Below are positions 46,702 through 64,000 of a DNA stretch of 64,000 bases, piece after piece. A program made the position numbers and the translations under genes. The stretch lies in assembly GCA_026706815.1 (NCBI GenBank), contig JAPOYA010000001.1, positions 43,790 to 107,789 of the forward strand. Direction: 5' to 3'. This stretch comes from Acidimicrobiaceae bacterium. GTDB lineage: Bacteria > Actinomycetota > Acidimicrobiia > Acidimicrobiales > Aldehydirespiratoraceae. The notes below the pieces were generated by a model, which saw nothing but the letters and a program-made list of their open reading frames with translations, did not search any database and was not told where the DNA came from. How positions within the stretch are numbered: the stretch's first letter is position 1; every line of letters starts with the position of its first letter.

Positions 46702-46745
46702 CCCGGATCCTTACCCAGAGGCAAGCGAGTTGGGACGGAGTTGGA

Positions 46746-49700
46746 TCAAAAAATCCCTCGACGGACCGTCTCGGCCTCTCGGTCGTTGATTCCGGCTTCG
46801 CGCTCGTAGCTTTCGGCTAGCCCCCTGAGGATCTCCGCTGTGCGGGGCCACTTTTGGAAGCGGCGGGCTTGCGCTCTGTAGTTCCCGGCGAGTTGGCGCT
46901 CTTGCTCACCTCCGTCGGTTGCTGAACGGGATGTGACGCCTCGCTGATTGAGGATGCCACATTCGAGACCTTGATCGACTTGGGCGGTTTGCAGTCGTTC
47001 CAGCAGGTTGCGAACGGCTTCACCGGGCCAGTCTCCGTTTGAATCCGGCGGAGAGAACGCGAGTGCTGTTCCGATCATCTGGTCACCGATATCCGCACGG
47101 TCGATAGCTGCCAGTTTCTCGCGAGTTTCGTCGACCCACTCGTCGAGTGAGCCCGCATCAAGGTCGCCGTTGTCATTGAGCGCTGGAGCGAAATGCACAG
47201 GAGGCCAGTGATTCAAGACCTCCCAAGCGTTGTGGGCGGCGTGTTGCTGGGCCTCGGTCAGCGTTGTCTGCTCGGCGGGCGCGCGGTTTGCCGGCTTGAA
47301 AGCGGTCTCGACCAACTGAACGAACAGCGCTGGGTCACGTGCCATCTCCCGGTACAGATTCGGCGCGTCGAAACGCATGCCTCTCTGCAACAGCGGAAGG
47401 TATTGCCATTCCAGTATGGCGACGCGTCCAGTGCCGAGGTGATCGCGGTGATCGTTGAGCAATTCGATCAATGTCTTGAGGCCCCTTTGGGTCGTTGCTG
47501 ATTCACCCTTGTCCTTGCCCGGATGATTGACCCACTGCTCCAAGGCTGCGGCAACCTCTTCGGCGATCTCGGACTCACTTGAATGACTGTCAGAGCGGCG
47601 TGCCAATAGATTCACGGCCAAATCGACGCGCTCTGCCTCGCGCAACTGGCGGCTGATCTTTAGCAGGTCGCTCAACTCGTCGATACCCCCGATGTCGTAG
47701 AAGCTGATACGGCTCCAATACTCGGCGGCGATGTCGGATCGGTGAGCATCCACCCGTGACCATGCGCGTGCCGCCGGGGGAGCCGCGCGGAGGATGTCTG
47801 CGGCGACTTGCGACGAAACGCCGCGGTCCTTGATGATCCGCTCGAAGCCCTCCCACCCCAGGGTGGCGAATCGCCGGCTGAAGTAGCCCAAGCTGAACGA
47901 CGTGATCTCTGCGGTGACCTCCTCCATGATTTGGAGGACGTCGTGGTCCAGTGTTGGATCGCAGCTCGCCAGGGCGAAACCTGCTGAGCGCGGGGAGTCG
48001 ACGGTTACGGCGAACTCGAGCACCGCCTGCATACCTCCGTCGGCCAGGATCGTCTCGACGGCTCCCGTCTGCCTCGATTGCAACGCCTCTTGAAACTCCT
48101 CGTGGCCGTCCACGGCGCGCACAGCGTCAACGGACCTTAGATCCGCTGAGAACAGGTAGCCGAACGCAGCGTCGTGTGCGGACGGACGCAGTCTTTGGAT
48201 CAACTGGTCGAGCACCTGTAGATCGCTTTCTGGGAGGGTCCACGAGGAATCGCTGAACTCGCGATGACGACTCGTGAAGTTCCGCAATTCAGGCCAGACC
48301 GCGGACTTGAATTGTTCCGGCACCGCTCTGTCAGACAATTCCTCCAGTTGCGAGACTGATCTGCGGCGGATCGAGTTGGGCATGTCGTTCATGCGTTTTA
48401 TCAACTGGACCCATCGGCCGGGATCATCGTCGACATCCTCCAGGATCATCTCCTCGACCGCGGACACCATGGCGGCTCGCTCTTGGGGAGTGACGACGGG
48501 TTGGACTGCCCTCCAATCTCGATATTGCGGCAATGCCCCGGGTGTCTGGACGCTGTGGTGTTGTGGGAGCATTGAGAGCATCAGCGTCCAGGCGACGTCT
48601 GGGTGGAACCGCCGCAGCATTTCAAGTGCTGCTAGCCGGTCCTCCGCATCGGCGGATGTGTACGGCATCCAGGTGCACATGATCGAAGCGAGCGCTGTAG
48701 CGGGCCTAGTTGTGTACATGCCGCCGGGGTCGAGTTCGTCGAGCCTTGCGAGCACATCGGCAACGGCTAACAGATGTTCGGGCGACCACGCGATGACTTC
48801 TAGAGCATTCAGGATTCGAAGATGAGGCGACGACGAACCGAAACCGAGACGGGCAGTGTTGTCGGTGAACATGACCTGCGTGAAGGCGTGCTGTTCCGCG
48901 ACGCAGGTCCGCAAGCTCTCGAGCACTGCCCCAGGCGCAGCCTCGGCGAGCAGCGGCAACGTGTCGGTGATGGCAATCCAGGTACTCGGGGTAGCGTCTT
49001 CCATCGCAGATCTGAGCACTCGACGGGTTGTGCCCTCAGCGAAGGTCGACGTTGGCGTCGGTTCGCCGCGCGGTGTGGGAGGGTTGCTTCCTGCAAGTGC
49101 GAGTGTGGTTGCTATCCCTTGTTTGAGCCTGGATGAGTACTTGGCCTTCGTGCCCTCAATCTGGTCTCGGAGTGTTTCCTCGCCGCTCAACTCCCGCAGT
49201 GGGTCAGGAGCCGTAAGTACATCGAGTGCGATTGCTGAGAAACTGTCCAGATCACTGGGAGAGAGTTGGTTGTGCAGCAGCATCCAGGTGTCTTCGGGCG
49301 ATACGGCGTGCCACAGTTCGCCGGTCGAAGTCATCGGTGAGTCAGCAGCGTCGAGTTGCCGCAGCGCCTCTGCCACTTCCTCGAAAGAGTGGTTGATGAA
49401 CTTTTTGACGATCTCACGGTCACCCTCATGAGCCTCATTCCAACCGCCGAGAAGCAGGCTCCGCCGTATTGTCTGGTCGGCCCGCCCGGTTGCCCAGCTT
49501 GGCATGTGCAAGGCTGGGTCGACACTGAGATTCCGCCGGAGCGCCATCAAGCTGATTCGTGCCAGTCCGGCCAGACGGTACGCCTCATGGAGTTCCTCGC
49601 CGGTTTCCTCGAACTGCGTGCGAACCAGTTCAGAGTCAACCGGCTCGAGGACGATTGTGGCCTGGGTGCTCCCCGGGACCGGCACGATCATTCGATGAGG

Positions 49701-51152
49701 ACTCCGGGCTGGTAGGTGTTGCGCATAGTCCGCTGACGGCACCACCATCGTCAACACGGGGACGTTTGTTTGCTGGCTCGGTTGAGTCGACAGGGATTCC
49801 TGGGCAAACAACCGTTCGGCGGTGTCATGACAATCCACATAGAGCACATGTGCAGCGTCGACTCGCTCAGCGTCACCGACCCCGAGCGCCGCGGCGACGA
49901 ATGCGATGATCTCGTCGCGGTGGACTTGACCGCCGATCGTGATCGCGCCGGGCTGCTGCTCGCAGCGCCCGCGTAGATCGGCGGAGTCCTGCTCGCGTCC
50001 TGCGAGCACGATGCCCTCGTCGAGGGGAGCAGTTGTTGCTGTCAGCCACTTCTCCCACCACTTGGCCAGCAGTTGGATGCCGACGGTGGGCTTATTGATC
50101 TGCTCGCGCATCCAGACAGTCGTGGCGACGGCGCAGGCGAGCCAGTCTTCGAGGCTGTCGACGTTCAAGGCACTGACCCTGCTGAAGTCGCCCTTGCTGG
50201 AGTACTCGGACTCAAATTCCCGTGCTTGGGTCCAAGGGGCGCACGCTGCCGAGACGTATGCAATCTCGTCACGTTCGGCAGGCAACTGATTCTTAACGCG
50301 CTTCTCGTAGTCGTCGACGACCTTGGCCTGGGTGCCGCTCTGTTGTGTCGTCAACTCCCACATAGACGTCCCGGCGGGAACGAAGCGGTTTCCTCGAGCG
50401 CATCTGACAACCCCGTCCCAACCGGGTGACGAAACACCGGTGCCAGCAGGCATATCGATCCATTCCGCCGATGGCTCAGTTTCGGCGATCAGGCTGCGCA
50501 CCAGTCTCGGAAATTCCGCGGCAGCGCGACTGGAGGAAGCCCAACTAAGCAGGTCGTCTCGGGTGACCCGCAGCGATTCAGGCACCGTGGGCAAGAGATG
50601 GATGGGAGGTTTCATGGTTTGCGCCAACTCGCAGGCGAGCCTGCGGTCATCCTCAGAGCAGAGAGCCACAAGGCCGGTTCCCCGCAATCCCTCAGCGATT
50701 CGCCCGAGGTCGCGGACATGATCCGCATCGAGGGGACATCGAATCGCGAACTCCTGCAGAGTTTCCCCGGCGTCTACCGCCGCTCGCAGATCTGCAATCT
50801 TTGGGTTAGCTCTCGCAAAGGCCTCGCGGAGTTCATCGGTCGCCACTGCTGCTAGTTCTCCATCCACGGTCGCGTCGCCACGCAACTGCGCCTCTTCGAC
50901 TATCTGGCGGAGCCAACCCCGCCGCGCAATATCGTCCTCCACATAGCCGAACGCACTAAGCCGCCTGCCTGCTCCAGCCAAGATCCGCGCTCTCGCTTTG
51001 CTGTCGTTTGGTCCGGGCAGTCTGCGCAGCCCCTCAATCCATGCCTGTTCAAGTTCGAGGAAATCGGTCGCTCCGGCGATGCGTTCAAGCGCGGAGTCGA
51101 CTATCTCCTGTGTCGTCTCGGCGGGCGGTTTCGACGCGGCGGTTGCGGTCAT
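46746..51152 (-). CDS. 1468-aa protein of unknown function; possible N-terminal PD-(D/E)XK-like motif, degenerate NTPase-like centre, long helical C terminus
   Basis: PGWDGVVRCARGNRFVPAGTSMWELTTQ...KVVDDYEKR motif region; uninterrupted ORF; 4-bp overlap with upstream gene. Confidence 0.75.
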   Translation of the reverse strand: MTATAASKPPAETTQEIVDSALERIAGATDFLELEQAWIEGLRRLPGPNDSKARARILAGAGRRLSAFGYVEDDIARRGWLRQIVEEAQLRGDATVDGELAAVATDELREAFARANPKIADLRAAVDAGETLQEFAIRCPLDADHVRDLGRIAEGLRGTGLVALCSEDDRRLACELAQTMKPPIHLLPTVPESLRVTRDDLLSWASSSRAAAEFPRLVRSLIAETEPSAEWIDMPAGTGVSSPGWDGVVRCARGNRFVPAGTSMWELTTQQSGTQAKVVDDYEKRVKNQLPAERDEIAYVSAACAPWTQAREFESEYSSKGDFSRVSALNVDSLEDWLACAVATTVWMREQINKPTVGIQLLAKWWEKWLTATTAPLDEGIVLAGREQDSADLRGRCEQQPGAITIGGQVHRDEIIAFVAAALGVGDAERVDAAHVLYVDCHDTAERLFAQESLSTQPSQQTNVPVLTMVVPSADYAQHLPARSPHRMIVPVPGSTQATIVLEPVDSELVRTQFEETGEELHEAYRLAGLARISLMALRRNLSVDPALHMPSWATGRADQTIRRSLLLGGWNEAHEGDREIVKKFINHSFEEVAEALRQLDAADSPMTSTGELWHAVSPEDTWMLLHNQLSPSDLDSFSAIALDVLTAPDPLRELSGEETLRDQIEGTKAKYSSRLKQGIATTLALAGSNPPTPRGEPTPTSTFAEGTTRRVLRSAMEDATPSTWIAITDTLPLLAEAAPGAVLESLRTCVAEQHAFTQVMFTDNTARLGFGSSSPHLRILNALEVIAWSPEHLLAVADVLARLDELDPGGMYTTRPATALASIMCTWMPYTSADAEDRLAALEMLRRFHPDVAWTLMLSMLPQHHSVQTPGALPQYRDWRAVQPVVTPQERAAMVSAVEEMILEDVDDDPGRWVQLIKRMNDMPNSIRRRSVSQLEELSDRAVPEQFKSAVWPELRNFTSRHREFSDSSWTLPESDLQVLDQLIQRLRPSAHDAAFGYLFSADLRSVDAVRAVDGHEEFQEALQSRQTGAVETILADGGMQAVLEFAVTVDSPRSAGFALASCDPTLDHDVLQIMEEVTAEITSFSLGYFSRRFATLGWEGFERIIKDRGVSSQVAADILRAAPPAARAWSRVDAHRSDIAAEYWSRISFYDIGGIDELSDLLKISRQLREAERVDLAVNLLARRSDSHSSESEIAEEVAAALEQWVNHPGKDKGESATTQRGLKTLIELLNDHRDHLGTGRVAILEWQYLPLLQRGMRFDAPNLYREMARDPALFVQLVETAFKPANRAPAEQTTLTEAQQHAAHNAWEVLNHWPPVHFAPALNDNGDLDAGSLDEWVDETREKLAAIDRADIGDQMIGTALAFSPPDSNGDWPGEAVRNLLERLQTAQVDQGLECGILNQRGVTSRSATDGGEQERQLAGNYRAQARRFQKWPRTAEILRGLAESYEREAGINDREAETVRRGIF

Positions 51153-51595
51153 GATGCTCCTAAATCGTACCCGCGTAGGGCTTGCAGGGGAATGTGGATT
51201 CCAGCCGATTCGAATGCTGTTCGAGCGATCTCGAGGCTTGCTTCGGCCGGACGGTAGTGGCCGCTGATGTTGTTGAGCGCCGACACGACAAATGATCCGT
51301 GCTCGGCTCTAATTTCGAGTTCTCCAGCGGCTTGCACGGGACCGCCGTCGGCGAGCACTGCATGAGTAATGTGCTCAACCCCAACTTGTCGTTTAGACAC
51401 CAGCAACCGCCCGCTTGCAACGACGTAGATGAGTCGCACGCCTTCGGCTGCGAGGGAGTCGAATTCTCTGCCGGGAATCTCAATGGGTCTGAGTCCGACT
51501 CGCCGAGCCGCCTCCATCTCTCCTTGAAGTTGCGAAGGCATCCGGTTGTAGTAGCTGGGAGGCAAGGTACAGCTTCTGTCCTCATAGCTTATCAA
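51149..51595 (-). CDS. 148-aa companion protein of unknown function (TTG 51595 or ATG 51541 start)
   Basis: ORF overlapping the 1468-aa gene start by 4 bp; C terminus NNISGHYRPAEASLEIARTAFESAGI. Confidence 0.7.
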   Translation of the reverse strand: MISYEDRSCTLPPSYYNRMPSQLQGEMEAARRVGLRPIEIPGREFDSLAAEGVRLIYVVASGRLLVSKRQVGVEHITHAVLADGGPVQAAGELEIRAEHGSFVVSALNNISGHYRPAEASLEIARTAFESAGIHIPLQALRGYDLGAS

Positions 51596-51612
51596 TTCTT
51601 TCCATTCTAGTT

Positions 51613-51632
51613 ATACATGAAAATACATGAAA
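51613..51632. repeat. 2 x 10-bp tandem atacatgaaa in AT-rich promoter-like region
   Basis: exact copies 51613-51622 and 51623-51632; minus strand reads CATGTATAACT, an extended -10-like element. Confidence 0.7.
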
Positions 51633-51866
51633 ATGCGGATATATGTTCGTAGTCCGAGTACAGTGCGGTCGCTCCCGCAGGTGCGGACTTCACCGTCGGC
51701 CAGACTCGGGATGCGGACCGCCACGGGGCTGACGGTTCAGCGTGATAGCGGGCCGCGCCGGGGCGAGTCGGCGCTTATGTTCACGCTGGCGGCTTCGGTG
51801 GGGCATGATGGACAGCGACCTGAACGGAAAGCGACCCCAATAGGACTGAATAGGAAAGGTGACGCC

Positions 51867-53479: not shown

Positions 53480-54763
53480 ATGTCAGAACCCGCCCCCACG
53501 CTCACAATGCCGGGTTATCGGACGCGCATTGCCGGTCGACAGGTTGAGGATGCTTTGCGCCGGCGGGGCGCGGTGCTCGTGGAGGGCGTGCGGGGATGCG
53601 GTAAGACCTGGATGTCGCGGCATTTCGCCCGCAGCGAGGTCCGGCTTGACGACGAGACAGCACTGCTTCTGGCCACCTCAGACCCCGATGCGGTGATGCA
53701 GGGTCCGACCCCTCGGCTGCTGGACGAATGGCAGAACGCGCCGCAGTTGTGGAACCGTGTGCGCCGGGAGTGCGATGACCGTCCCGGGAACGGTCAGTTC
53801 ATTCTGACTGGCTCGTCGAGTCCGCAAGACGATGTGACGCGGCATACCGGTACTGGACGCATAAGCAGAGTGCTGCTTCGGCCGATGTCATTGTGGGAGA
53901 CGGGCGGGTCGAGTGGAACGGCGTCGCTGAAGAAGTTGTTCGAGGGTGAGTCGGCCTCCTGCCTTCCCGAATCACAGCCGGGGCTGCGAGATGTCGCCTC
54001 GGCGATCTGTACGGGTGGTTGGCCGCGGCACCTAGGTCAAAGCGAGGACGATGCCTTTTCGTCAGCGGACGACTACGTCAATGAGATCATTCGAGTGGAT
54101 ATCCCAGCGGCCAGTGGAGTGCGACACGACCCCACGATGCTGCGCCGGCTGATGCAGTCTCTCTCGCGCAACGTGGCAACCGAGGCCAAGATGACCAAAC
54201 TGGCGTCCGACATGGACGCAGGCCACCCGCCGGGGCGCAACACAGTGTCTGCGTACCTTGATGCTCTACACCGCATTTTCGTCATCGAAGACCAGCCTGC
54301 GTGGTCTGTGAACCTGCGATCGAAGGCGACCCTCAGACGAGAACCCAAGCGGCATCTCGTGGACCCCTCTTTGGCCGCCGCCATGCTACGGACCACACCT
54401 GAGCGGTTGCTGTCTGACCCTTCGACTTTCGGCTTTCTGTTCGAATCGCTGGTGGTGCGCGATCTTCGCATCTACAGCCAGCCTGAAGGCGGCATGGTGT
54501 TTCATTACCGCGACAACACGGGTTTGGAGGCCGATGCCGTCGTTGAATTGACAGACGGGTCTTGGATCGCTGTAGAGATCAAACTCAGCACCGGCCGCAG
54601 AACCGTCAACAGGGCTGCTGAGAACCTGATTCGCCTCCGGGACAAGGTGTCTAGCCGACGCGCTTCTGAACTGGCAGCCTTGGTGGTGGTCGCCCCCACC
54701 GGAGCCGCATACCGTCGTCCTGATGGCGTACAAGTCGTCCCCATCTCCACCCTCGGCCCCTGA
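53480..54763 (+). CDS. ATPase with C-terminal DUF4143-type nuclease-like domain
   Basis: VEGVRGCGKTWMSRHFA P-loop, LLDEWQ, ILTGSSSP; C-terminal HYRDNTGLEADAVVEL...AVEIKLS. Confidence 0.85.
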   Translation: MSEPAPTLTMPGYRTRIAGRQVEDALRRRGAVLVEGVRGCGKTWMSRHFARSEVRLDDETALLLATSDPDAVMQGPTPRLLDEWQNAPQLWNRVRRECDDRPGNGQFILTGSSSPQDDVTRHTGTGRISRVLLRPMSLWETGGSSGTASLKKLFEGESASCLPESQPGLRDVASAICTGGWPRHLGQSEDDAFSSADDYVNEIIRVDIPAASGVRHDPTMLRRLMQSLSRNVATEAKMTKLASDMDAGHPPGRNTVSAYLDALHRIFVIEDQPAWSVNLRSKATLRREPKRHLVDPSLAAAMLRTTPERLLSDPSTFGFLFESLVVRDLRIYSQPEGGMVFHYRDNTGLEADAVVELTDGSWIAVEIKLSTGRRTVNRAAENLIRLRDKVSSRRASELAALVVVAPTGAAYRRPDGVQVVPISTLGP

Positions 54764-54891: not shown

Positions 54892-56112
54892 ATGGCTGAA
54901 ATAACGATTGATCTGTTACGGAATGCAGTCAGCGGTGGGGCTGTTGCGCTGCGCTCGATCATGCGGCTGCAACCCGTGGACGGGCCTGGGGGGAAAGTGT
55001 TCCCGCCAACTTACGCAGTTACGGCTGAGCACAAGTACGCAGTGGAGGAGAGGCGGGTAGGAGACAGAGTGGCGACAACCGTGCTGCTTGACTCTGTGGC
55101 ATCGCAGGCGAACCGCGCCGAACTGGCCTTGAAGGAGGGTTGGGAGGAAGGGGAACTGAGTTTCCCTGTGCCGTATGTGGACTTCACCGACGAGGTCGGT
55201 GTTGATGACTTGGGCAAGATCACCGTGTTGGATGCGCCTCACCGATTTGCGGACGCGATCTTCCGCGACAGCCTGCTTGACGGTACGTTGTTCCGGTTGA
55301 GCGATATGGGGCGCGCCATTACCGATGCACGCCCCGGGAACGCAACGGCGATGTTTCGCTACGCACCCACTGCGCTTTTGTTCGGTCAGTGGGACTCGAC
55401 TGGCCCCAAGGGTGGTCTCGGTTCGAAGTTCCAACGAGCGTACGTGTCAGAGATCGTTGGGCTCGATGCCCAGATCGGACGCAAGGTAGGCAGCCGAATC
55501 GATCCGCTCCAGATCGAACGTGATGCAGCGGTCGCTTACGAGCACAGCGATCCAGCTCAAGGCTGGACGCTGGACAGAGCTGACGCTGCTCTGGAAAAAG
55601 GGGGGAAACCCAAAACGGCCGGGTCAGATGGACGTCCTTCCGAAATCAATCACGGCAACATAGCCCCGTCGATTGACTCGCAGTCTGGAGGCGTGACGAT
55701 TTCAGAGGCGCGGCAAACCACGGTGATCTCGCTAGCCGCCTTAAGGCGCCTGCGTTTCGCTGGTGCTAGTCGAGAGGCTGAGGTAGCGGCGCGCACTGCC
55801 ATAGCCGCGCTGGGGGTCGCCGCGATTGCCTACGGATATGAGATGGATCACGATCTTCGGTCTCGTTGCCTGCTTGTCCCAGAACATACGCCCGCTCTGG
55901 AGCTCGTTCGCCGTGACGGTTCAACACCTGAACCAGTTGAAGTGGATCGCGAGTCGGCGGCTCGATTGCTATCCCAGGCATCCGAGCGAGCCGCCCGAGC
56001 GGGCATTGTTTGGGAGGACGACACAATTTCCCTCACGCCCGCTCCGAAACTGCTTGAGCTGTTGAGGCGTAGTCGCGAAGTGTCGGCCCGAGAACCGGTG
56101 GAGAGCGACTGA
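54892..56112 (+). CDS. csb1: type I-G CRISPR-associated RAMP protein Csb1 (Cas7)
   Basis: GSU0053-like sequence (LQPVDGPGGKVFPPTY...LLDSVASQANRAELAL...FGQWDSTGPKGGLGSKFQRAYVSEIVG). Confidence 0.92.
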   Translation: MAEITIDLLRNAVSGGAVALRSIMRLQPVDGPGGKVFPPTYAVTAEHKYAVEERRVGDRVATTVLLDSVASQANRAELALKEGWEEGELSFPVPYVDFTDEVGVDDLGKITVLDAPHRFADAIFRDSLLDGTLFRLSDMGRAITDARPGNATAMFRYAPTALLFGQWDSTGPKGGLGSKFQRAYVSEIVGLDAQIGRKVGSRIDPLQIERDAAVAYEHSDPAQGWTLDRADAALEKGGKPKTAGSDGRPSEINHGNIAPSIDSQSGGVTISEARQTTVISLAALRRLRFAGASREAEVAARTAIAALGVAAIAYGYEMDHDLRSRCLLVPEHTPALELVRRDGSTPEPVEVDRESAARLLSQASERAARAGIVWEDDTISLTPAPKLLELLRRSREVSAREPVESD

Positions 56113-57851
56113 TGGTCGCAATTGAGGTCACTTTCCTCACGGGTCGTTACGTCGCAACAGCTCATCATGACCGGGAAGCACACGAGTGGCCACCTCACGG
56201 AGCCCGGTTGTTTTCGGCGATGGTCGCAACCTGGGCCGACGCCGAGGTTCCCGACGAAATTGAACGGGCGGCGCTCAAGTGGTTGGAATCACAACCACCT
56301 CCTCGGATAACAGCGCCCGAGGCAGTTCCGCGGAGAACCGTCAGCCATTTTGTTCCAGTCAACGATGCTCGAGTCATCGCCCCGGCTTCGTACCACCGTC
56401 GAGCCGGTGAAATTGCGGAGTTGCTTGGACAGTTCGACGATGAAGTCAAGGCCTCCGATGGAGAGTTGAACAAGAAGGCCGAGAGGCTGCAGGACAAGAT
56501 CGACAAGAAACTAGACGTTGACTTGCTTGTGGGCCGGGCTGGCAATACGAACATCGACTCCGCCCTGGCTCTGTTGCCCGATGGGCGGGGCAAGAAGGAA
56601 CGCTACTTCCCCTCGCTCACCTTGATGACGCCTCAAACTGCCGGTAACACGAGCGAGCGCCAGGAGCCGGCAATGGTTCGATCTCCTTTTGGCACTGTGA
56701 CCTATGCTTGGGACGAGAACCCGCTGGACGAAACGGCTGAAGTGCTCGACGCGCTTTTGGGTCGCGTTGCCCGGTTGGGCCACTCGTCATCTCTGGTGTC
56801 CTGCCGATTGATTGATGACGCGCCTCCAGCTACGCACACGCCTGGTGATGGCCCGTCGATGTTGCGCTGGGTGCGTCCCGGTCAACTGGATGCGCTTGAG
56901 GAGGAGCATGCTCGGCATCAAGCGAATAGACCACGCAGTCTGCCGTTCCACGCAGTGCGATATCGCGAGGCGCACGTAGCAGAGTCTGGGCCCGGTGAGC
57001 TAGTGCGCCCCACGACCGCCGGTGATTGGATTGTCTTCGAGTTGGAGCAGAGCCATAGACGCTTACCAATGACGAGAAGTGTCGAGCTAGCGCGTGTTCT
57101 GCGTGAGTCCCTGCTCAGCCATGTGTCGGACCCGATTCCGGAAGGAGTGAGCGGACACAGATCCGATGGCAGACCGACGGAATCCCCTCACATTTTGTTC
57201 CTGGGCCTGCCAAACGTCGGTTACGAGCACTCCGACGGCCGGATCATGGGACTCGCTGTGTCTCTCCCCGATGGGCTCGACGATATGGCTCGCAATGCAA
57301 CGCTGCGTGGTATCGGTGCGTGGGAACACAAGCGCGGAGGCAAGCCGCTGCAGTTGAGGATGGGTCCCAAAGGTGAGGTCGTGATGCGCAGAAGGCAGCC
57401 ACCGTTCGTTTTGAAGGCTTTGGACCCAGCAGTCTGGGCACGCTGTTCACGGTGGTGGGTGTCGGCCACCCCCGTGGCGCTGCCGGCGCATCCCGGCGAC
57501 CTTCGGAGGGGCAGTCCAGCGGTACGGGCCAAAGCCTGGGCCCGAGCCGCGGAGTCTGTTGCAAAATCCTGCGAACATGTCGGCTTGCCGCGCCCCGCAG
57601 ATGTGCGAGTGTCGTTCGTGTCAGAACTTGTGGGGACGCGTCCTTCGCACGACTTCCCTGTGTTCAAGCAGGGGCGCGGAGGCGGGGGAGTGATCCGACG
57701 ACTGGTCCATGTCTCAGTAGAGTTCGACGAGGAAATCGCGGGCCCTCTGGTTCTTGGCAGCGGCCGTTTTCTAGGCTTGGGACTTATGCGCCCGATGGGC
57801 CCCCGAACCTCGAATGAAGCAGTCGCAGGGGAGGGGGTTGGCGATGTTTGA
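56112..57851 (+). CDS. csb2: type I-G CRISPR-associated protein Csb2 (Cas5-Cas6 fusion)
   Basis: GSU0054-like (EVTFLTGRYVATAHHDREAHEWPPHGARLFSAMVATW); overlaps csb1 and cas3. Confidence 0.9.
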   Translation: MVAIEVTFLTGRYVATAHHDREAHEWPPHGARLFSAMVATWADAEVPDEIERAALKWLESQPPPRITAPEAVPRRTVSHFVPVNDARVIAPASYHRRAGEIAELLGQFDDEVKASDGELNKKAERLQDKIDKKLDVDLLVGRAGNTNIDSALALLPDGRGKKERYFPSLTLMTPQTAGNTSERQEPAMVRSPFGTVTYAWDENPLDETAEVLDALLGRVARLGHSSSLVSCRLIDDAPPATHTPGDGPSMLRWVRPGQLDALEEEHARHQANRPRSLPFHAVRYREAHVAESGPGELVRPTTAGDWIVFELEQSHRRLPMTRSVELARVLRESLLSHVSDPIPEGVSGHRSDGRPTESPHILFLGLPNVGYEHSDGRIMGLAVSLPDGLDDMARNATLRGIGAWEHKRGGKPLQLRMGPKGEVVMRRRQPPFVLKALDPAVWARCSRWWVSATPVALPAHPGDLRRGSPAVRAKAWARAAESVAKSCEHVGLPRPADVRVSFVSELVGTRPSHDFPVFKQGRGGGGVIRRLVHVSVEFDEEIAGPLVLGSGRFLGLGLMRPMGPRTSNEAVAGEGVGDV

Positions 57852-60800
57852 TCTGTCGCCCGATGACTTTGATTCGTTCTTCCAGGCTGTTCATGGTCAT
57901 GCACCGTACCCATGGCAGAGCCGCCTAACCCGGCAGGTGCTAAACGACGGGAAGTGGCCCGATGTCATTGATCTGCCTACGGGCACCGGTAAGACGTCTG
58001 TGCTCGACACGGCTATCTTCGCGCTCGCGGCCCGCCCAAGGGTGTTTCCGCGCCGCGTTGTCTTCGTCATCGACCGGCGAATTGTTGTCGATCAGGTTTA
58101 TGAACGCGCTGAGCAGATCCGCGACGCGATAGGTGGAGCAACCGAAGGGATTCTCCTTGATATCAAAGAGCGCCTAAAGGACCTGACAAATGCTCGCGAG
58201 GCGTTGGGCATAGCGGCGCTTCGGGGCGGAATTCCACTCGATGGAGAGTGGTTCCGTCGCCCCGATCAGCCTTGGGTGATGGTCTCGACCGTGGATCAGT
58301 TCGGTTCTCGCCTGCTGTTCAGGGGTTATGGTGTCAGTGAGCGGATGCGATCCGTTCATGCGGGTCTAGCTGGCAACGACTGTCTCGTCATACTCGACGA
58401 AGTCCACCTGAGTCATGCTTTCGCCAGCACGCTCAGAGAAGTTTCTTCCAACGGGGACATTCCTGGGTTGTGTTCAGTGGGTGGAGGTCTCCCACACCGA
58501 TTCCAGGTTGTTGAGATGTCGGCCACGCCGACACGGGAATCCGGTGCCCGATTCAGCCTTCGCTCGCAGGACCTTGAGGCATCGGAGAAGCTCAAACAGA
58601 TCGCCGAGGCTCCGAAACGAGCAACTCTGGTCGAAGTGCCTGGTACACGTGATGCACACGAGACCGCACCGAAGACAGTGTTGAACTTGGTCAAAAAGGA
58701 GTTGTGGGATGATGAGATGAGCGTCGGTGTCATCGTGAACCGTGTCCGCACCGCCCGCGAGGTCCATGCAGCGCTCCAAAAAAAGGGAATTGCTGCTCAT
58801 CTAGTGACTGGCCGTATGCGGCCGATCGACAAGACGGAGGTGTTGGAGAAAATAAGTGAGTGTGTCGACCCTGATAGAGATTCACCACAGTCCGAACCGA
58901 CTGTGATTGTGGCGACTCAAGCGATTGAGGTCGGCGCCGATTTCAGCTTCGACGCGCTGATAACCGAAGCTGCCCCGATCGACAGTTTGCAGCAGCGACT
59001 CGGTCGACTTGACCGACGTGGCGCGCTCGCTGCGAGACGTCTAGGCATCGGTTCCAGCCGGTGGGTCCAACCTGCTTTAGTCGACTTTGAGGGCGAGGCT
59101 GAGGTGGAGGCCCACGAAGCTGCAGCCAGATGCTGGATTCTCGGCGTTGCTTCGGCACTGAATCCCAAGAAACCCGATCCGGTTTACGGCGACAGAGCTA
59201 GAAAAGCTTGGGAAGCTATGCAGCAAATCGCTCAGGATGACGTGATCGACGTCGGGCCTGGAACGAGTCTCTCCGGACGTTTGGGTCGAGAAGCACAGGC
59301 CGCCAAATCCGAAGCGCCTCTGCTGCTGCCGATTCACATCGACGCGTGGTCCCAGACCAACCCCAGGCCCGTCATCGATCCGTCGATCGCGGAGTTCTTG
59401 CACGGCAAGGAGTGTGAGAACGAACCAGACGTTTCACTCTTGTGGCGTTATGACCACTCTGAGCAAGCCATCACGCTGGTGCCACCTAGGCCCGCCGAGT
59501 TCCTTTCAGTCTCGATCTCGGCGGTCAGAAACTGGCTTCGCCGTTCTGAGGAGCCAGTCATGGGAGACGTTGCGCTTGATACTCCTTGGGAGAGTCCGAA
59601 ACGAACGAGGTTGGAGGATCGGGAACTAACCGGAGTAGCACGATGGGCGCGGGGCGAAACGGTCGTCGAGCGTGTGCGCCGAGTGGAGCAGATCAAGCCC
59701 GGAGACGTGATCATCGTGGACCCGGATTTCGGCGGGCTACGAAATGGTAACTGGGATCCCGACCATCGACCGGCTCAGGGTCAGATCTCAGAGGAGGGAC
59801 CGGTAGAACCCTGGGCAGTCCTCGATGTCGGTGACGAGGTTCAGATTTCCCGCGACAGACATGTAGAGCACCTTGAGCGCGCGACACTCAGATTGGACCG
59901 GCGCCTGTTCGAAGGACTCGATATCCCCGAGTCGCCGAAGATGCCGACTCCCGCTGATGAGCACGAGGCAGAACGTTCTCTGGAGGAGAGGATTCGAGAG
60001 TGGTTGTCATCGCTTGGCGAACTGCCTCCAGGGTGGATTCCAGACTGGATGGAGCGCGTCGCTAAGCAGTTCATTGAACACTCGTTTAGAACCGAACTCG
60101 TTGACGGGAAGGACGATTCGGGTTACTACGTGCTGGTTCAGCGCTCGGTCGATCCAACCGCATTGGACGGCTTCGATGATCAACAGTCTCTCACAGGAAC
60201 CGAAACTACTTTGAGAGAGCACTTGGCCGGTGTTGGAGGCAAGGTGGCGGAGTTTGGTCACAGCTTGAGTCTGGCGAACGAGGTGATTGAGGACCTGCGT
60301 TTGGCGGCAGAGTTGCACGACTTGGGTAAAGTCGACTGCAGGTTCCAGTCTCAAATGTGCGGCCATGATTCGGTGACTATGGCGGGTATGGACGAGCCGT
60401 TGGCCAAGTCGTTGCCAGGTGTGCGAACAAAACGATACGGATGGCCGCCTGTGCGTCACGAGTTCACCAGCGTTGCCCTCGCCCAAAGCGTGCCGGAGTT
60501 GCTTGATCAGGCGCATGATCCAGACTTGGTGCTGCATCTCGTGGGTTCGCATCATGGTTACAGCCGACCGCTCCCGGCGATCAAGGAGGACCTGGCACCG
60601 CAGACCCTGAAACTTTCTGGTGAGTTAGTAGAAGGAGGATTCCGGCTCTCTGTGGACGACGAACTTCAGGATCAGCGGGGAACCTCAAGTGGCATTCTGG
60701 AGTTGAGCACGCGCTCGGACTTGGCTGAGACATCGCTGGCGCTCGACATGGCGGATCGGTTCTGGCGTTTGCAGGAAAAATACGGATATCACGGACTCGC

Positions 60801-60864
60801 GTGGTTGGAGGCGATACTTCGGTTGGCAGATCAGCAGCAGAGCGCGGAGGAGGCAGCACGATGA
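57844..60864 (+). CDS. cas3: CRISPR-associated helicase/nuclease Cas3, I-G type with C-terminal HD
   Basis: DLPTGTGKTSVLDTAIF, VILDEVHLSHAF, QRLGRLDRRG; HD motif LAAELHDLGKVDCRF near C terminus. Confidence 0.94.
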   Translation: MFDLSPDDFDSFFQAVHGHAPYPWQSRLTRQVLNDGKWPDVIDLPTGTGKTSVLDTAIFALAARPRVFPRRVVFVIDRRIVVDQVYERAEQIRDAIGGATEGILLDIKERLKDLTNAREALGIAALRGGIPLDGEWFRRPDQPWVMVSTVDQFGSRLLFRGYGVSERMRSVHAGLAGNDCLVILDEVHLSHAFASTLREVSSNGDIPGLCSVGGGLPHRFQVVEMSATPTRESGARFSLRSQDLEASEKLKQIAEAPKRATLVEVPGTRDAHETAPKTVLNLVKKELWDDEMSVGVIVNRVRTAREVHAALQKKGIAAHLVTGRMRPIDKTEVLEKISECVDPDRDSPQSEPTVIVATQAIEVGADFSFDALITEAAPIDSLQQRLGRLDRRGALAARRLGIGSSRWVQPALVDFEGEAEVEAHEAAARCWILGVASALNPKKPDPVYGDRARKAWEAMQQIAQDDVIDVGPGTSLSGRLGREAQAAKSEAPLLLPIHIDAWSQTNPRPVIDPSIAEFLHGKECENEPDVSLLWRYDHSEQAITLVPPRPAEFLSVSISAVRNWLRRSEEPVMGDVALDTPWESPKRTRLEDRELTGVARWARGETVVERVRRVEQIKPGDVIIVDPDFGGLRNGNWDPDHRPAQGQISEEGPVEPWAVLDVGDEVQISRDRHVEHLERATLRLDRRLFEGLDIPESPKMPTPADEHEAERSLEERIREWLSSLGELPPGWIPDWMERVAKQFIEHSFRTELVDGKDDSGYYVLVQRSVDPTALDGFDDQQSLTGTETTLREHLAGVGGKVAEFGHSLSLANEVIEDLRLAAELHDLGKVDCRFQSQMCGHDSVTMAGMDEPLAKSLPGVRTKRYGWPPVRHEFTSVALAQSVPELLDQAHDPDLVLHLVGSHHGYSRPLPAIKEDLAPQTLKLSGELVEGGFRLSVDDELQDQRGTSSGILELSTRSDLAETSLALDMADRFWRLQEKYGYHGLAWLEAILRLADQQQSAEEAAR

Positions 60865-61781
60865 CTGATTCGGATGGAACGTTGTTGTCAGGTTTGCCGG
60901 GCAACAATCCGCTTGGATTCCTGGCGGCGCTGGGTGTACAGACAGCTTTGGATACGCAAGGCCGAAAGTGCGCGATGTATTGGACCGATCAACCGATCCC
61001 GCAGCCTGTCCTCGAACCTGCGGTCGACCTTGCCGAGATCGCCGAAGCGGTTCTCGTTGTTGCAGCGCGCTGGCTCGACGGACCCGCTCTAGACGAGACG
61101 ATCGACCCCAAATTGAAACTGAAGTCTCAGGAAATTCGCGAGTACTTGGAACAGGGGCGCGCTGCGGGATCATCGGGACTGCTCGCAGTGTGCCTTCTGG
61201 CCGAAGGCAGCTTGGACCGGAGCCAGATCGCGAAGCCGTCGGACTTCTACTTCACGGCGGGACAGCAGAAGTTCGTCTCGATTGCTCGTACCAGTCTCGG
61301 CGAAGTAACCGAGGACGAGGTCGTTGCAGATGCGGGATCGCCGTGGTGCTACCTGGGGGATCGGGATTCGCTGATGTGGGATACGGTCGATGATCGAGAT
61401 CACGCTCTCAGTGCTTCGGACCCGTCCAAGTCCAAGAAGCCCACAAATCCCGGTGCGGAAGCGCTCGCCATTATTGGTTTGGGCAGATTCCCGTGTTTCG
61501 CTTCCTCGGGCCGGACCCTCACGCAGGGCTGCTCGGGGACTTGGAAGGACGGCGCGTTCACCTGGCCGCTGTGGGGTGTGCCCGCCTCGTCCAGGACGGT
61601 GGGGTCCTTGCTGGGCCATGTCGCTCCAGAAGGAACTGAGAGTGAACGCCGTCGTCTGAAGTGGTACAGGGCATGGGGAATCAATCGCGTCCTCCAGTCA
61701 CAGATTCGGCGAAGCGACCAAGGAGGTTACGGAACGTTCGGACCCCCACGTGTGGTCTGGCAGCGTGAGTGGCGTTCCTGA
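60861..61781 (+). CDS. compact type I-G Cas8-like subunit (Csb3/Cas8g2 or Cas3-extension family; exact family uncertain)
   Basis: 306 aa, LLSGLPGNNPLGFLAALGVQTAL N terminus; ATGA overlap with cas3; position between cas3 and cas4-cas1. Confidence 0.7.
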   Translation: MTDSDGTLLSGLPGNNPLGFLAALGVQTALDTQGRKCAMYWTDQPIPQPVLEPAVDLAEIAEAVLVVAARWLDGPALDETIDPKLKLKSQEIREYLEQGRAAGSSGLLAVCLLAEGSLDRSQIAKPSDFYFTAGQQKFVSIARTSLGEVTEDEVVADAGSPWCYLGDRDSLMWDTVDDRDHALSASDPSKSKKPTNPGAEALAIIGLGRFPCFASSGRTLTQGCSGTWKDGAFTWPLWGVPASSRTVGSLLGHVAPEGTESERRRLKWYRAWGINRVLQSQIRRSDQGGYGTFGPPRVVWQREWRS

Positions 61782-61835
61782 TCTTGCGCACGACCAGAAC
61801 CGTCGAGACCGCAGCGGCGATAGGCATCTGGCTAA

Positions 61836-63473
61836 GTGAGTGACGTTCCCGATCTTGTGCCGGCTCGGATGATCAATGAGTTCGAGTACTGCCCGAGGCT
61901 CTTCTATCTGGAGTGGGTGCAGTCGCGCTTTGAGCACAATCGGGACACGGTTGAGGGTCTCTACGTCCACCGGGTGGTTGACGCTGGCGGCGGTCGCATG
62001 GGCACGGTCGAGGACCCGCCGTTCAAGAAAGCTAAGTCTGTCGAGTTGAGTTCCCGCCGGCTCGGTCTGATAGCCAAGGCCGACATCATTGAGCAGCGCA
62101 ACGGCAGTGTCGTGCCGGTGGAGGTGAAACGCGGGCGGCCACCCAAACATGGTCCGGCCTGGATGCCTGAACAGGTGCAGATATGCACGATCGGTTTGCT
62201 GCTGCAAGACAACGGTTACGAGTGCTCCGAAGGCCAGTTCTATTTCGCCGAGACTCGCAAGCGCACGACCATTCCGTTTGATCAGCCGTTGATCGACCAC
62301 ACACTGAGCCTCGTTGAGAAGCTTCGCGAAGCCGCGGCACGACCTGACGCCCCTCCGCCGCTCATCGACAGTCCCAAGTGTCCAAGATGTTCTCTGGTCG
62401 GCATTTGTCTGCCAGACGAGACAAACCTCCATACGAAACGCAGCACAACTGCTCCCCGCCGCCTCACGCCTCGCGACTCGGCAGCGAGACCACTGTATGT
62501 GACTGAGCAAGGCGCCAGGATCGGTATCCGTTCCGGGCGTGTCGTGGTCAGCAAGGGCCGTGATGAAATCCAGCAACTTCGCCTGATTGACGTCTCGCAG
62601 ATCGCCATCTACGGCAATGTCCAGATCAGCAGCCAGATGATGCGTGCGGCGTTTCGAGAGGAAATATCCGTCTGCTGGTTCTCGTATGGGGGATGGTTCC
62701 AAGGTATCGCAGAGGGTTTGCCGTCCAAGCACGTAGACCTCCGTCGCCGCCAAGTCGCGATCGCGGCGCAGGCTGGGCTGCCGATCGCCCAGGCGATGAT
62801 CGAAGGAAAAATACGCAACTCGCGGACGTTCCTGAGAAGAAACTCCCGTTCCGATGTCAAGCGTGAGGTGGAGCAACTCAAATCGCTCGCAGACGGCATC
62901 GGTCGGATCGAGTCGATTGAGAGTCTGTTGGGCATGGAAGGCACGGGTGCTCGGTTGTACTTCTCAAAATTTGCGTCAATGATCCGTGATGAGAGTCTCG
63001 GAACGTTCGATTTCAACGGACGCAACAGGCGTCCGCCAAGAGACCCCGTCAACTGTCTGCTGTCCTATGTGTACGCACTGCTCACAAAAGACTTGACGGC
63101 AGTCGCCATCGCGGTCGGGCTTGATCCGTATCTGGGCGTCTTCCACCGGCCCCGATTCGGCCGTCCGGCCCTGTCGTTGGACCTCGCGGAGGAGTTCCGC
63201 CCCTTGATCGCAGAGTCCGTCGTGATCAACGCAATCAACAACGGAGAGGTAAACCTGAAAGACTTCCAAGTTCGCGCCGGCGGTGTCTCCCTGACTCAGA
63301 AGGGGCGGCGATCCGTTCTGGCAGCGTACGAACGACGACTCGACACTCAGGTAACGCATCCCACCTACGGTTACCGGATCACATATCGACGTGTTCTCGA
63401 GGTTCAAGCACGCGTTCTCGCAGCTCATCTGCTCGGCGAAATCCCCGAGTACACCCCCTTCATGACGAGATAG
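61836..63473 (+). CDS. cas4-cas1: CRISPR-associated Cas4-Cas1 fusion
   Basis: Cas4: EYCPRLFYLEW, KADI...VEVKRGR, CPRCSLVGIC; Cas1: LLGMEGTGARLYF, GLDPYLGVFHRPRFGRPALSLDLAEEFRP. Confidence 0.95.
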   Translation: MSDVPDLVPARMINEFEYCPRLFYLEWVQSRFEHNRDTVEGLYVHRVVDAGGGRMGTVEDPPFKKAKSVELSSRRLGLIAKADIIEQRNGSVVPVEVKRGRPPKHGPAWMPEQVQICTIGLLLQDNGYECSEGQFYFAETRKRTTIPFDQPLIDHTLSLVEKLREAAARPDAPPPLIDSPKCPRCSLVGICLPDETNLHTKRSTTAPRRLTPRDSAARPLYVTEQGARIGIRSGRVVVSKGRDEIQQLRLIDVSQIAIYGNVQISSQMMRAAFREEISVCWFSYGGWFQGIAEGLPSKHVDLRRRQVAIAAQAGLPIAQAMIEGKIRNSRTFLRRNSRSDVKREVEQLKSLADGIGRIESIESLLGMEGTGARLYFSKFASMIRDESLGTFDFNGRNRRPPRDPVNCLLSYVYALLTKDLTAVAIAVGLDPYLGVFHRPRFGRPALSLDLAEEFRPLIAESVVINAINNGEVNLKDFQVRAGGVSLTQKGRRSVLAAYERRLDTQVTHPTYGYRITYRRVLEVQARVLAAHLLGEIPEYTPFMTR

Positions 63474-63477
63474 CGCT

Positions 63478-63777
63478 ATGGCAACCGGCAGAACCCGATT
63501 TCTTGTGAGCTACGACATCAGCGACTCAAAGCGCTTGAGGATGGTCCACAAGTGCGTCAAGAACTATGGCTGGTCGATGCAGTACAGTGTGTTCATCTGC
63601 GATCTAGACTCTGTCGAGATAGTAATGTTGAAACAGGATTTGAGTTCGATTATTCATCACGGAGAGGACTCTGTGGCTTTCATAAATCTCGGACCCCCAG
63701 CGAATCGTGGCCAAGACTGCTTCGATTTCATGGGCCTGAGGACTGCGTTGCCGACATCGGGCCCCACCGTTATCTGA
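63478..63777 (+). CDS. cas2: CRISPR-associated endoribonuclease Cas2
   Basis: FLVSYDISDSKRLRMVHKCVKNYGWSMQYSVFICDL. Confidence 0.93.
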   Translation: MATGRTRFLVSYDISDSKRLRMVHKCVKNYGWSMQYSVFICDLDSVEIVMLKQDLSSIIHHGEDSVAFINLGPPANRGQDCFDFMGLRTALPTSGPTVI

Positions 63778-63949
63778 TGCGAGCGCTAAGTTGCGGTGCG
63801 AAGCCTTAGGGACCGCTCGCAGCCTGCTAGCGCAAGGTAAATTGCACTTTGACAACAGAATCAAGGCTGCTTCGAAGCTTGCTTTCTCGAACCGCTCGCA
63901 AACACCCGCGAACAAGCAGGTAAACCCTCCTGTAACGAGTGAGCCATTT

Positions 63950-63984
63950 GGCCGGACGATCGTCCGGCCCTCCATTGAAGGGCC
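63950..63984. other. overlapping palindromes at the window edge, candidate CRISPR leader/first repeat boundary
   Basis: 20-bp perfect palindrome GGCCGGACGATCGTCCGGCC (63950-63969) overlapping hairpin GGCCCT-CCATTGA-AGGGCC (63966-63984). Confidence 0.5.
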
Positions 63985-64000
63985 GTCGCCCAGGTCATGG

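What the first reader, a model, noticed from the sequence alone, without database searches (positions are those of the whole stretch)
46746..51595. Undescribed two-gene operon (148 aa + 1468 aa) in the island next to CRISPR-Cas
Two minus-strand genes overlap by 4 bp (51149-51152), so they are probably co-translated. The large protein has an N-terminal region (PGWDGVVRCARGNRFVPAGTSMWELTTQQSGTQAKVVDDYEKR) whose D...E...K spacing could be a PD-(D/E)XK-like nuclease. It then has a P-loop-like but degenerate stretch (ITIGGQVHRDEIIAFVAAALG) and about 900 aa of helical, HEAT-like sequence. The small protein ends with NNISGHYRPAEASLEIARTAFESAGI. A nuclease-like domain plus a very large helical/NTPase-like scaffold, an AT-richer promoter and proximity to CRISPR-Cas is the architecture expected of a phage-defence system. 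The function is inference.
Basis: partly seen in the sequence, partly recalled or inferred. Interest (0 to 1): 0.75.

Follow-up and report, generated by a model that had tools for sequence, protein, structure and literature searches.

The report
Toxin-like gene plus NLR-like nuclease protein
Next to a CRISPR system sits a recently inserted gene pair that joins a small cousin of the toxins bacteria fire at rivals to a giant, immune-receptor-like protein of an unnamed family, and it looks like a new variant of anti-phage or conflict system.

Summary
The gene pair is real and conserved. All 10 relatives that cover the junction keep the small gene directly upstream of the large one; the six intact copies overlap by the same ATGA. 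The small gene probably starts at a conserved TTG (51565; 138 aa, not 148). The large protein belongs to a widespread family absent from Pfam, NCBIfam and PADLOC: [TPR-like domain found only where the small gene is] + Mrr/PD-(D/E)XK-like domain with invariant D246, E266, K277 + NTPase-like domain without a Walker A lysine + winged helix + long C-terminal scaffold. Relatives swap the N-terminal module. The pair is an exact 5,057-bp insertion at a hotspot: two congeners have the precise empty site, while the neighbouring type I-G CRISPR-Cas is resident. Best reading: an NLR/Avs-like conflict or anti-phage module pairing a toxin-like effector with a nuclease-scaffold sensor. Architecture and mobility are shown; toxicity, nuclease activity and defence are inferred. 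It is not a member of Avs or PD-lambda-4 by the tests run. New variant of a known kind.

The parts
46702..51758 (.). Whole inserted cassette (5,057 bp) between an MttB-type methyltransferase gene and a ferredoxin gene
   Evidence: Global alignment: window 46701 is joined directly to 51759 in L086 (G001) and L087 (G003). Insert GC 60.8%, flanks 62.8-63.1%; GC3 of small/big genes 0.58/0.69, flanking genes MttB, FdR and DMGDH-like 0.76-0.82, cas7g 0.63
51149..51565 (-).
   Evidence: Alignment A4 with Rhs/LXG C-terminal tips: invariant H78, G84, V87, A89-A90-G91, S111-G112-H113-Y114 in 148-aa numbering; start codon
46746..51152 (-). Large gene, 1468 aa
   Evidence: close relatives, distant relatives
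50613..51122 (-). Residues 11-180: all-helical, TPR-like N-terminal domain, found only where the small gene is present
   Evidence: AlphaFold2 pLDDT mostly 74-91 in this stretch; profile search of 33 loci
50133..50567 (-). Residues 196-340: Mrr/PD-(D/E)XK-like domain
   Evidence: Invariant D246, E266, K277, D281; order alpha-beta-beta-beta-alpha-beta in a low-confidence model; colinear hhalign with Mrr_cat, P = 0.0036, control comparisons 0.26-0.39
49518..50030 (-). Residues 375-545: degenerate NTPase-like domain, no Walker A lysine
   Evidence: hhalign against a P-loop protein aligns the stretch with GSQDMGKS
49083..49490 (-). Residues 555-690: winged-helix-like domain
   Evidence: Helices and strand pairs at pLDDT about 70-91; identification as a winged helix is by secondary-structure order
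46749..49055 (-). Residues 700-1468: C-terminal scaffold, shared with proteins that have other N-termini; probably a helical superhelix (not modelled)
   Evidence: hhalign, 899 columns, E 3e-122 to L051 (alignment starts before residue 700); modular relatives
51604..51633 (-). Sigma-70-like promoter match
   Evidence: TTTTCA-18-TAGAAT, 9 of 12; 0.1 expected by shuffles

Best explanation
A mobile two-gene conflict (most likely anti-phage or anti-plasmid) module. The large protein is an NLR/Avs-like scaffold: its C-terminal region senses a foreign trigger and its core carries an Mrr-like nuclease and an ATP-independent (Walker-A-less) NTPase-like switch. The small protein is an intracellular toxin-type effector made just before it from a weak TTG start. 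The helical N-terminal domain, present only in copies with the small gene, docks and restrains the small protein; on sensing a trigger the toxin is released or activated and, with the nuclease, stops the infected cell. Shown: gene order and coupling, toxin-domain homology, domain order, conserved residues, insertion at a hotspot, defence-gene neighbours. Inferred: sensing, restraint by the N-terminal domain, toxicity, DNA cleavage and phage defence.
For: Small = toxin-type domain: E. coli Rhs tip (two of 84 genomes sharing the Rhs core carry this tip), Listeria LXG C-terminus, a giant cyanobacterial protein's C-terminus, actinobacterial long ORFs. Coupling: in 100 relatives the close small homologue occurs only with the long-form large gene (7 loci in 6 genomes; the other hits lie in long toxin-type ORFs), and the N-terminal domain occurs only with it. 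In L024 and L032 single deletions remove the SGHY half of the toxin together with the N-terminal domain, while the rest of the large ORF stays open. Architecture. Mobility: exact empty sites, foreign GC3, other cargo at the same site. Neighbours: HmaB in three loci, PRTase_III-A, PDC-S01, type I-G cas; plasmid relative among SIR2, abortive-infection and TA genes.
Against: No experiment on any member; no family in PADLOC 2023. Neighbour enrichment is modest: control stretches also held HmaB, DrmMI and type IIG hits, and the HmaB-linked loci may be one ancestral locus. The nuclease lysine is not at the usual ExK position, and Mrr similarity is weak in absolute terms (hhalign probability 9%). AlphaFold was unconfident for the nuclease and NTPase regions and for the small protein. 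The N-terminal domain shows no similarity to genes next to the secreted toxins. Plasmid relatives carry HTH or HigA N-termini, which also fits regulation or addiction.
Confidence: 0.42

Rival explanations
1. The nuclease-scaffold protein is the only effector (an Avs-like or restriction-like DNA killer) and the small protein is a regulator, adaptor or brake that happens to use a fold also used by toxins.
For: The large family works without the small gene in most lineages. D246, E266 and K277 are invariant. In L024 and L032 the small gene is cut while the large ORF stays open.
Against: The residues conserved across secreted toxins are kept in the small protein, as expected if its activity is kept. 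L032 also lost the nuclease triad yet stays open.
Confidence: 0.25
2. A toxin-antitoxin or addiction module: the small gene is the toxin and the large protein is a giant antitoxin/regulator that stabilises mobile DNA.
For: Plasmid relatives carry HTH_3, HTH_17 or HigA N-termini; ATGA overlap as in TA pairs; location in mobile DNA.
Against: The partner is 1,468 aa with nuclease and NTPase-like domains; most relatives have no small partner; the window copy is chromosomal and has no HTH hit.
Confidence: 0.18
3. Not a conflict system: a DNA-repair or housekeeping factor with a scaffold, carrying a captured toxin-like gene.
For: No functional data; Foldseek gave no match below E 0.001.
Against: Accessory distribution: 11 of 100 relatives have a match to the large protein; exact insertions; presence on plasmids and in viral contigs; N-terminal module swapping.
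Confidence: 0.1

Closest known systems
Avs (antiviral STAND) and other bacterial NLR-like proteins
   Same: Order of parts: N-terminal nuclease-type effector, NTPase-like module followed by a winged-helix-like domain, very long C-terminal sensor-type region. Avs3, CED-4 and Dark are among the top (non-significant) Foldseek matches.
   Different: No Walker A lysine in any aligned member; no PADLOC match to any Avs model; extra helical N-terminus tied to a separate toxin-type gene.
PD-lambda-4 (Vassallo et al. 2022, PMC9519451; P-loop NTPase domain noted in PMC10952713)
   Same: A large helical protein of similar length; two distant relatives hit the PADLOC PD-Lambda-4_A model weakly (2e-5, 9.5e-5).
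   Different: The window protein does not hit it. The weak hits are in different model registers. A homologue found with the model has an intact Walker A, and neither A2 nor A3 matched it by hmmsearch.
Polymorphic toxin C-terminal domains (Rhs-CT, LXG-CT)
   Same: The small protein has the same domain and invariant residues (hhalign to a further toxin).
   Different: It is a standalone 138-aa protein without a trafficking region, and its neighbour is a 1,468-aa scaffold, not a small immunity protein.
Mrr-type restriction nucleases (PF04471)
   Same: Colinear profile alignment over the whole Mrr domain: DG motif, central strand, later strand and LID-x-L tail.
   Different: The canonical lysine two residues after the central acidic residue/glutamine is G, S or T; the invariant lysine lies about 11 residues later. 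No Pfam hit.
HTH/HigA-headed large plasmid proteins (e.g. WP_105009704.1, WP_012197948.1)
   Same: Same core, at 26-29% identity over about 1,250 aa.
   Different: HTH or HigA head instead of the TPR-like domain; no SGHY gene beside them.

Membership tests
Polymorphic-toxin SGHYxP domain family (small protein) | H...G..V.AAG(E)...SGHY motif set in colinear order | tested here: met
   A4; profile search; hhalign (probability 96.6%)
Secreted polymorphic toxin system | N-terminal trafficking domain (Rhs, LXG, ...) plus adjacent immunity gene | tested here: not met
   138-aa standalone ORF; its partner is the large gene; no similarity of residues 1-180 to genes next to the secreted toxins
Avs / STAND NTPase | P-loop NTPase with Walker A (GxxGxGK[ST]) | tested here: not met
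   Walker A lysine absent in all members of A2 and A3
Avs / STAND NTPase | N-terminal effector domain, central NTPase plus winged helix, long C-terminal sensor | tested here: inconclusive
   Order supported by alignment and a partial model; no significant structural match
Avs / STAND NTPase | Match to a curated Avs model | tested here: not met
   PADLOC 2.0.0, no hit at E 0.5
PD-Lambda-4 | Match to the PD-Lambda-4_A model over its length | tested here: not met
   Window protein no hit, none in its genome; distant relatives hit weakly and only in part
PD-(D/E)XK nuclease (Mrr-like) | Fold alpha-beta-beta-beta-alpha-beta with catalytic Asp and Glu on strands 2 and 3 | tested here: inconclusive
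   Element order right but low confidence; hhalign P 0.0036 against controls 0.26-0.39
PD-(D/E)XK nuclease (Mrr-like) | Lysine at ExK | tested here: not met
   Position +2 is G/S/T; an invariant K lies 11 residues after E266. Lysine migration is known in this fold (general knowledge)
Type II toxin-antitoxin system | Small toxin neutralised by a co-expressed partner | not testable with these tools
   Only the operon structure was tested: ATGA overlap
Anti-phage defence system | Reduces phage plating when cloned | not testable with these tools
   Indirect only: neighbours (control 108), mobility

The most novel reading that the evidence does not exclude
A guarded-toxin immune system: an NLR-like, ATP-independent nuclease-scaffold protein holds an intracellular member of a bacterial antagonism toxin family (SGHYxP) through a dedicated N-terminal domain and releases it on infection. 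It would be one branch of a large modular family whose common scaffold is combined with HTH, HigA, nuclease or partner-gene modules.
Probability: 0.3. Interest if true: 0.78.

Novelty: new variant of a known kind. Interest (0 to 1): 0.58.

Why it matters
It would show the weapons bacteria use against rivals being reused inside the cell as the effector of an NLR-like immune protein, and it exposes a widespread family on plasmids, in prophage-type viral contigs and on chromosomes that no library searched here recognises. The SGHYxP domain, carried by Rhs and LXG toxins, has no Pfam model or solved relative by sequence, so this pair also gives a compact handle on an uncharacterised toxin fold.

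Tried and rejected
No hits for the window pair: Pfam, NCBIfam, PADLOC, PDB by sequence. AlphaFold of the small protein with three sequences failed (pLDDT 42), so no fold search was made with it. AlphaFold of residues 1-700 was confident only for 11-180 and 550-690; Foldseek gave nothing below E 0.001. Membership in PD-lambda-4 rejected. A first Mrr comparison was invalid because half the sequences were translated on the wrong strand; it was redone. The idea that the N-terminal domain is a fused copy of a known immunity protein was tested against genes next to four SGHY toxins and found no support. The idea that CRISPR-Cas and the operon form one island was rejected by empty sites in congeners that keep the cas genes. 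A resemblance of some prophage N-termini (L049-L054, L059) to Cap4/DUF4297 is from memory and was not confirmed by Pfam, PADLOC or PDB. A resemblance of SGHYxP to plant IQM proteins is also from memory and untested. Viral-contig scans with the small family found no relative.

Full report
OBSERVATION. Neither has a match in Pfam, PADLOC or NCBIfam, and the large one has none in PDB sequences. The large gene has relatives at 47-58% identity in Acidimicrobiia-type genomes, one of them labelled Microthrixaceae and one Acidimicrobiia bacterium, and distant relatives at 26-29% on plasmids of Rhizobium, Cupriavidus, Thalassospira, Arthrobacter, Shewanella and others. The small gene lies directly upstream in all ten close relatives that cover the junction. 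In the six intact ones the genes overlap by the same ATGA and the small gene begins with a TTG at one aligned position, window 51565. The 138-aa form is therefore preferred to the 148-aa form.

SMALL PROTEIN. It is the same domain as the C-terminal tip of polymorphic toxins. tblastn against plasmid records found a giant cyanobacterial protein with an RHS-like C-terminal region, Streptomyces proteins, Listeria LXG proteins and an E. coli Rhs protein. In E. coli the Rhs core is shared by 84 genomes, but in the other listed records the match stops at about query base 585-600, where the SGHY domain begins; only two genomes keep the full query, so the domain sits at the variable toxin tip. The alignment is colinear over most of the small protein for the cyanobacterial, Streptomyces and E. 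coli members. Invariant over all ten sequences are I76, H78, G84, V87, A89, A90, G91, S111, G112, H113, Y114 and G132; E92 and P116 are nearly invariant. Further members sit at or near the C-termini of long actinobacterial ORFs and match by profile. No Pfam model or solved structure was found. The enzymatic activity is unknown.

LARGE PROTEIN. Four parts can be separated. (a) Residues 11-180 are confidently predicted to be helical, and Foldseek's helical-repeat matches are TPR-like or designed repeats. This part is absent from the distant relatives and occurs only where the small gene is present. It is also the least conserved part of the protein among close relatives (44% mean identity against 48-58%). 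(b) Residues about 196-340 carry D246, E266, K277 and D281, invariant in every member of A2 and A3 that keeps the region. A profile comparison with Mrr_cat sequences gave a colinear alignment over the whole domain (pairwise P 0.0036, hhalign probability 9%; control comparisons 0.26 and 0.39). The usual ExK lysine is missing; the invariant lysine is 11 residues downstream of the glutamate. (c) Residues about 375-545 align with a true P-loop protein so that the degenerate stretch falls on its GSQDMGKS motif (E 0.0003 for a single comparison, probability 40%); the Walker A lysine is absent in every member. A winged-helix-like domain follows (550-690), the order seen in NLR/STAND proteins (general knowledge). 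(d) The rest is a scaffold shared, over 899 columns at E 3e-122, with prophage-type proteins that have a different N-terminus. Its core was not modelled. Other members carry HTH_3, HTH_17 or HigA heads, or pair the scaffold with a small upstream gene that shares an NHSGTGDNIG-type tag with it (L056, L057). Swapping effector- or regulator-like modules on one scaffold is what immune receptor families do (inference).

SURROUNDINGS. In G001 and G003 the base before window 46702 is joined directly to 51759, so the pair is an exact 5,057-bp insertion; the site is also unoccupied in G005. In G002 a diverged, damaged copy sits at the same spot together with an AAA_14/DUF4143-type (PDC-S01) gene, and G004 has an ORF clearly similar to that gene there. 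The type I-G cas genes next door are present in G001, G003 and G005 without the pair, so the pair came to the CRISPR locus, not with it. GC3 of the small and large genes (0.58, 0.69) is below that of the flanking MttB, FdR and DMGDH-like genes (0.76-0.82), as expected of foreign DNA, though cas7g is at 0.63. In other genomes the pair lies beside HmaB (three loci), PRTase_III-A or PDC-S01. Scanning 58 neighbour ORFs gave HmaB in four, HmaA, PDC-S01 in two and cas genes. Sixty-nine control ORFs gave one HmaB, one or two type IIG and one DrmMI, plus six to the mad3 model, judged non-specific here. Enrichment is therefore suggestive only; one control stretch lies on the same contig as an operon.

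MECHANISM. The most economical reading is a guarded toxin plus nuclease. Points that favour the small gene as effector rather than brake: residues conserved in secreted toxins are kept; its start codon is a conserved TTG; and in two genomes one deletion removed the SGHY half of the small gene together with the N-terminal domain, leaving the rest of the large ORF open, which would be dangerous if the small protein were the antidote. In L022 the small gene has two stop codons while the large ORF is open, but that contig has only about 4.6-fold coverage by its title, so the stops may be errors. These are draft assemblies and the deletions could be assembly faults. What triggers the system, whether the toxin-like protein is toxic and whether the nuclease cuts are all unknown.

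COMPARISON. It works like an Avs/NLR-type protein in architecture but fails the Walker A test and matches no Avs model; it fails the PD-lambda-4 model test; the small protein passes the toxin-domain test but is not a secreted polymorphic toxin. I therefore call it a new variant of a known kind.

Noticed in passing
window 46701/51759: The MttB-ferredoxin junction is an insertion hotspot: toxin/scaffold pair in G000, the same pair plus an AAA_14/DUF4143 gene in G002, an AAA_14/DUF4143-like ORF in G004, empty in G001, G003 and G005.
   Followed up: yes
window 53480-54763: AAA_14/DUF4143 ATPase matching PADLOC candidate PDC-S01, between ferredoxin reductase and cas7g; also present in G001, no alignment to the window there in G003.
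   Followed up: partly
window 54892-61781: Type I-G CRISPR-Cas (Cas7g, Cas56g, Cas3g, Cas3-extension/Cas8g), 72-75% DNA identity to the congeners over the part compared; no direct repeats found at 61500-64000, so the array is not in that stretch.
   Followed up: partly
L062, L063, L064, L068-L071: SGHYxP domains at or near the C-termini of long actinobacterial ORFs, in G331 as an array of three; an uncharacterised toxin-domain family without a Pfam model.
   Followed up: partly
L056:6555-9688 and L057:745-3905: Another branch of the scaffold family in viral contigs: a 107-120-aa helical upstream gene and the scaffold protein carry the same NHSGTGDNIG-type tag, suggesting homotypic pairing of effector and scaffold.
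   Followed up: no
L029 (G093) and L030 (G008): Decayed copies of the large gene: split by inserted DNA in G093, and an internal deletion joining the nuclease start to the C-terminal tail in G008.
   Followed up: no
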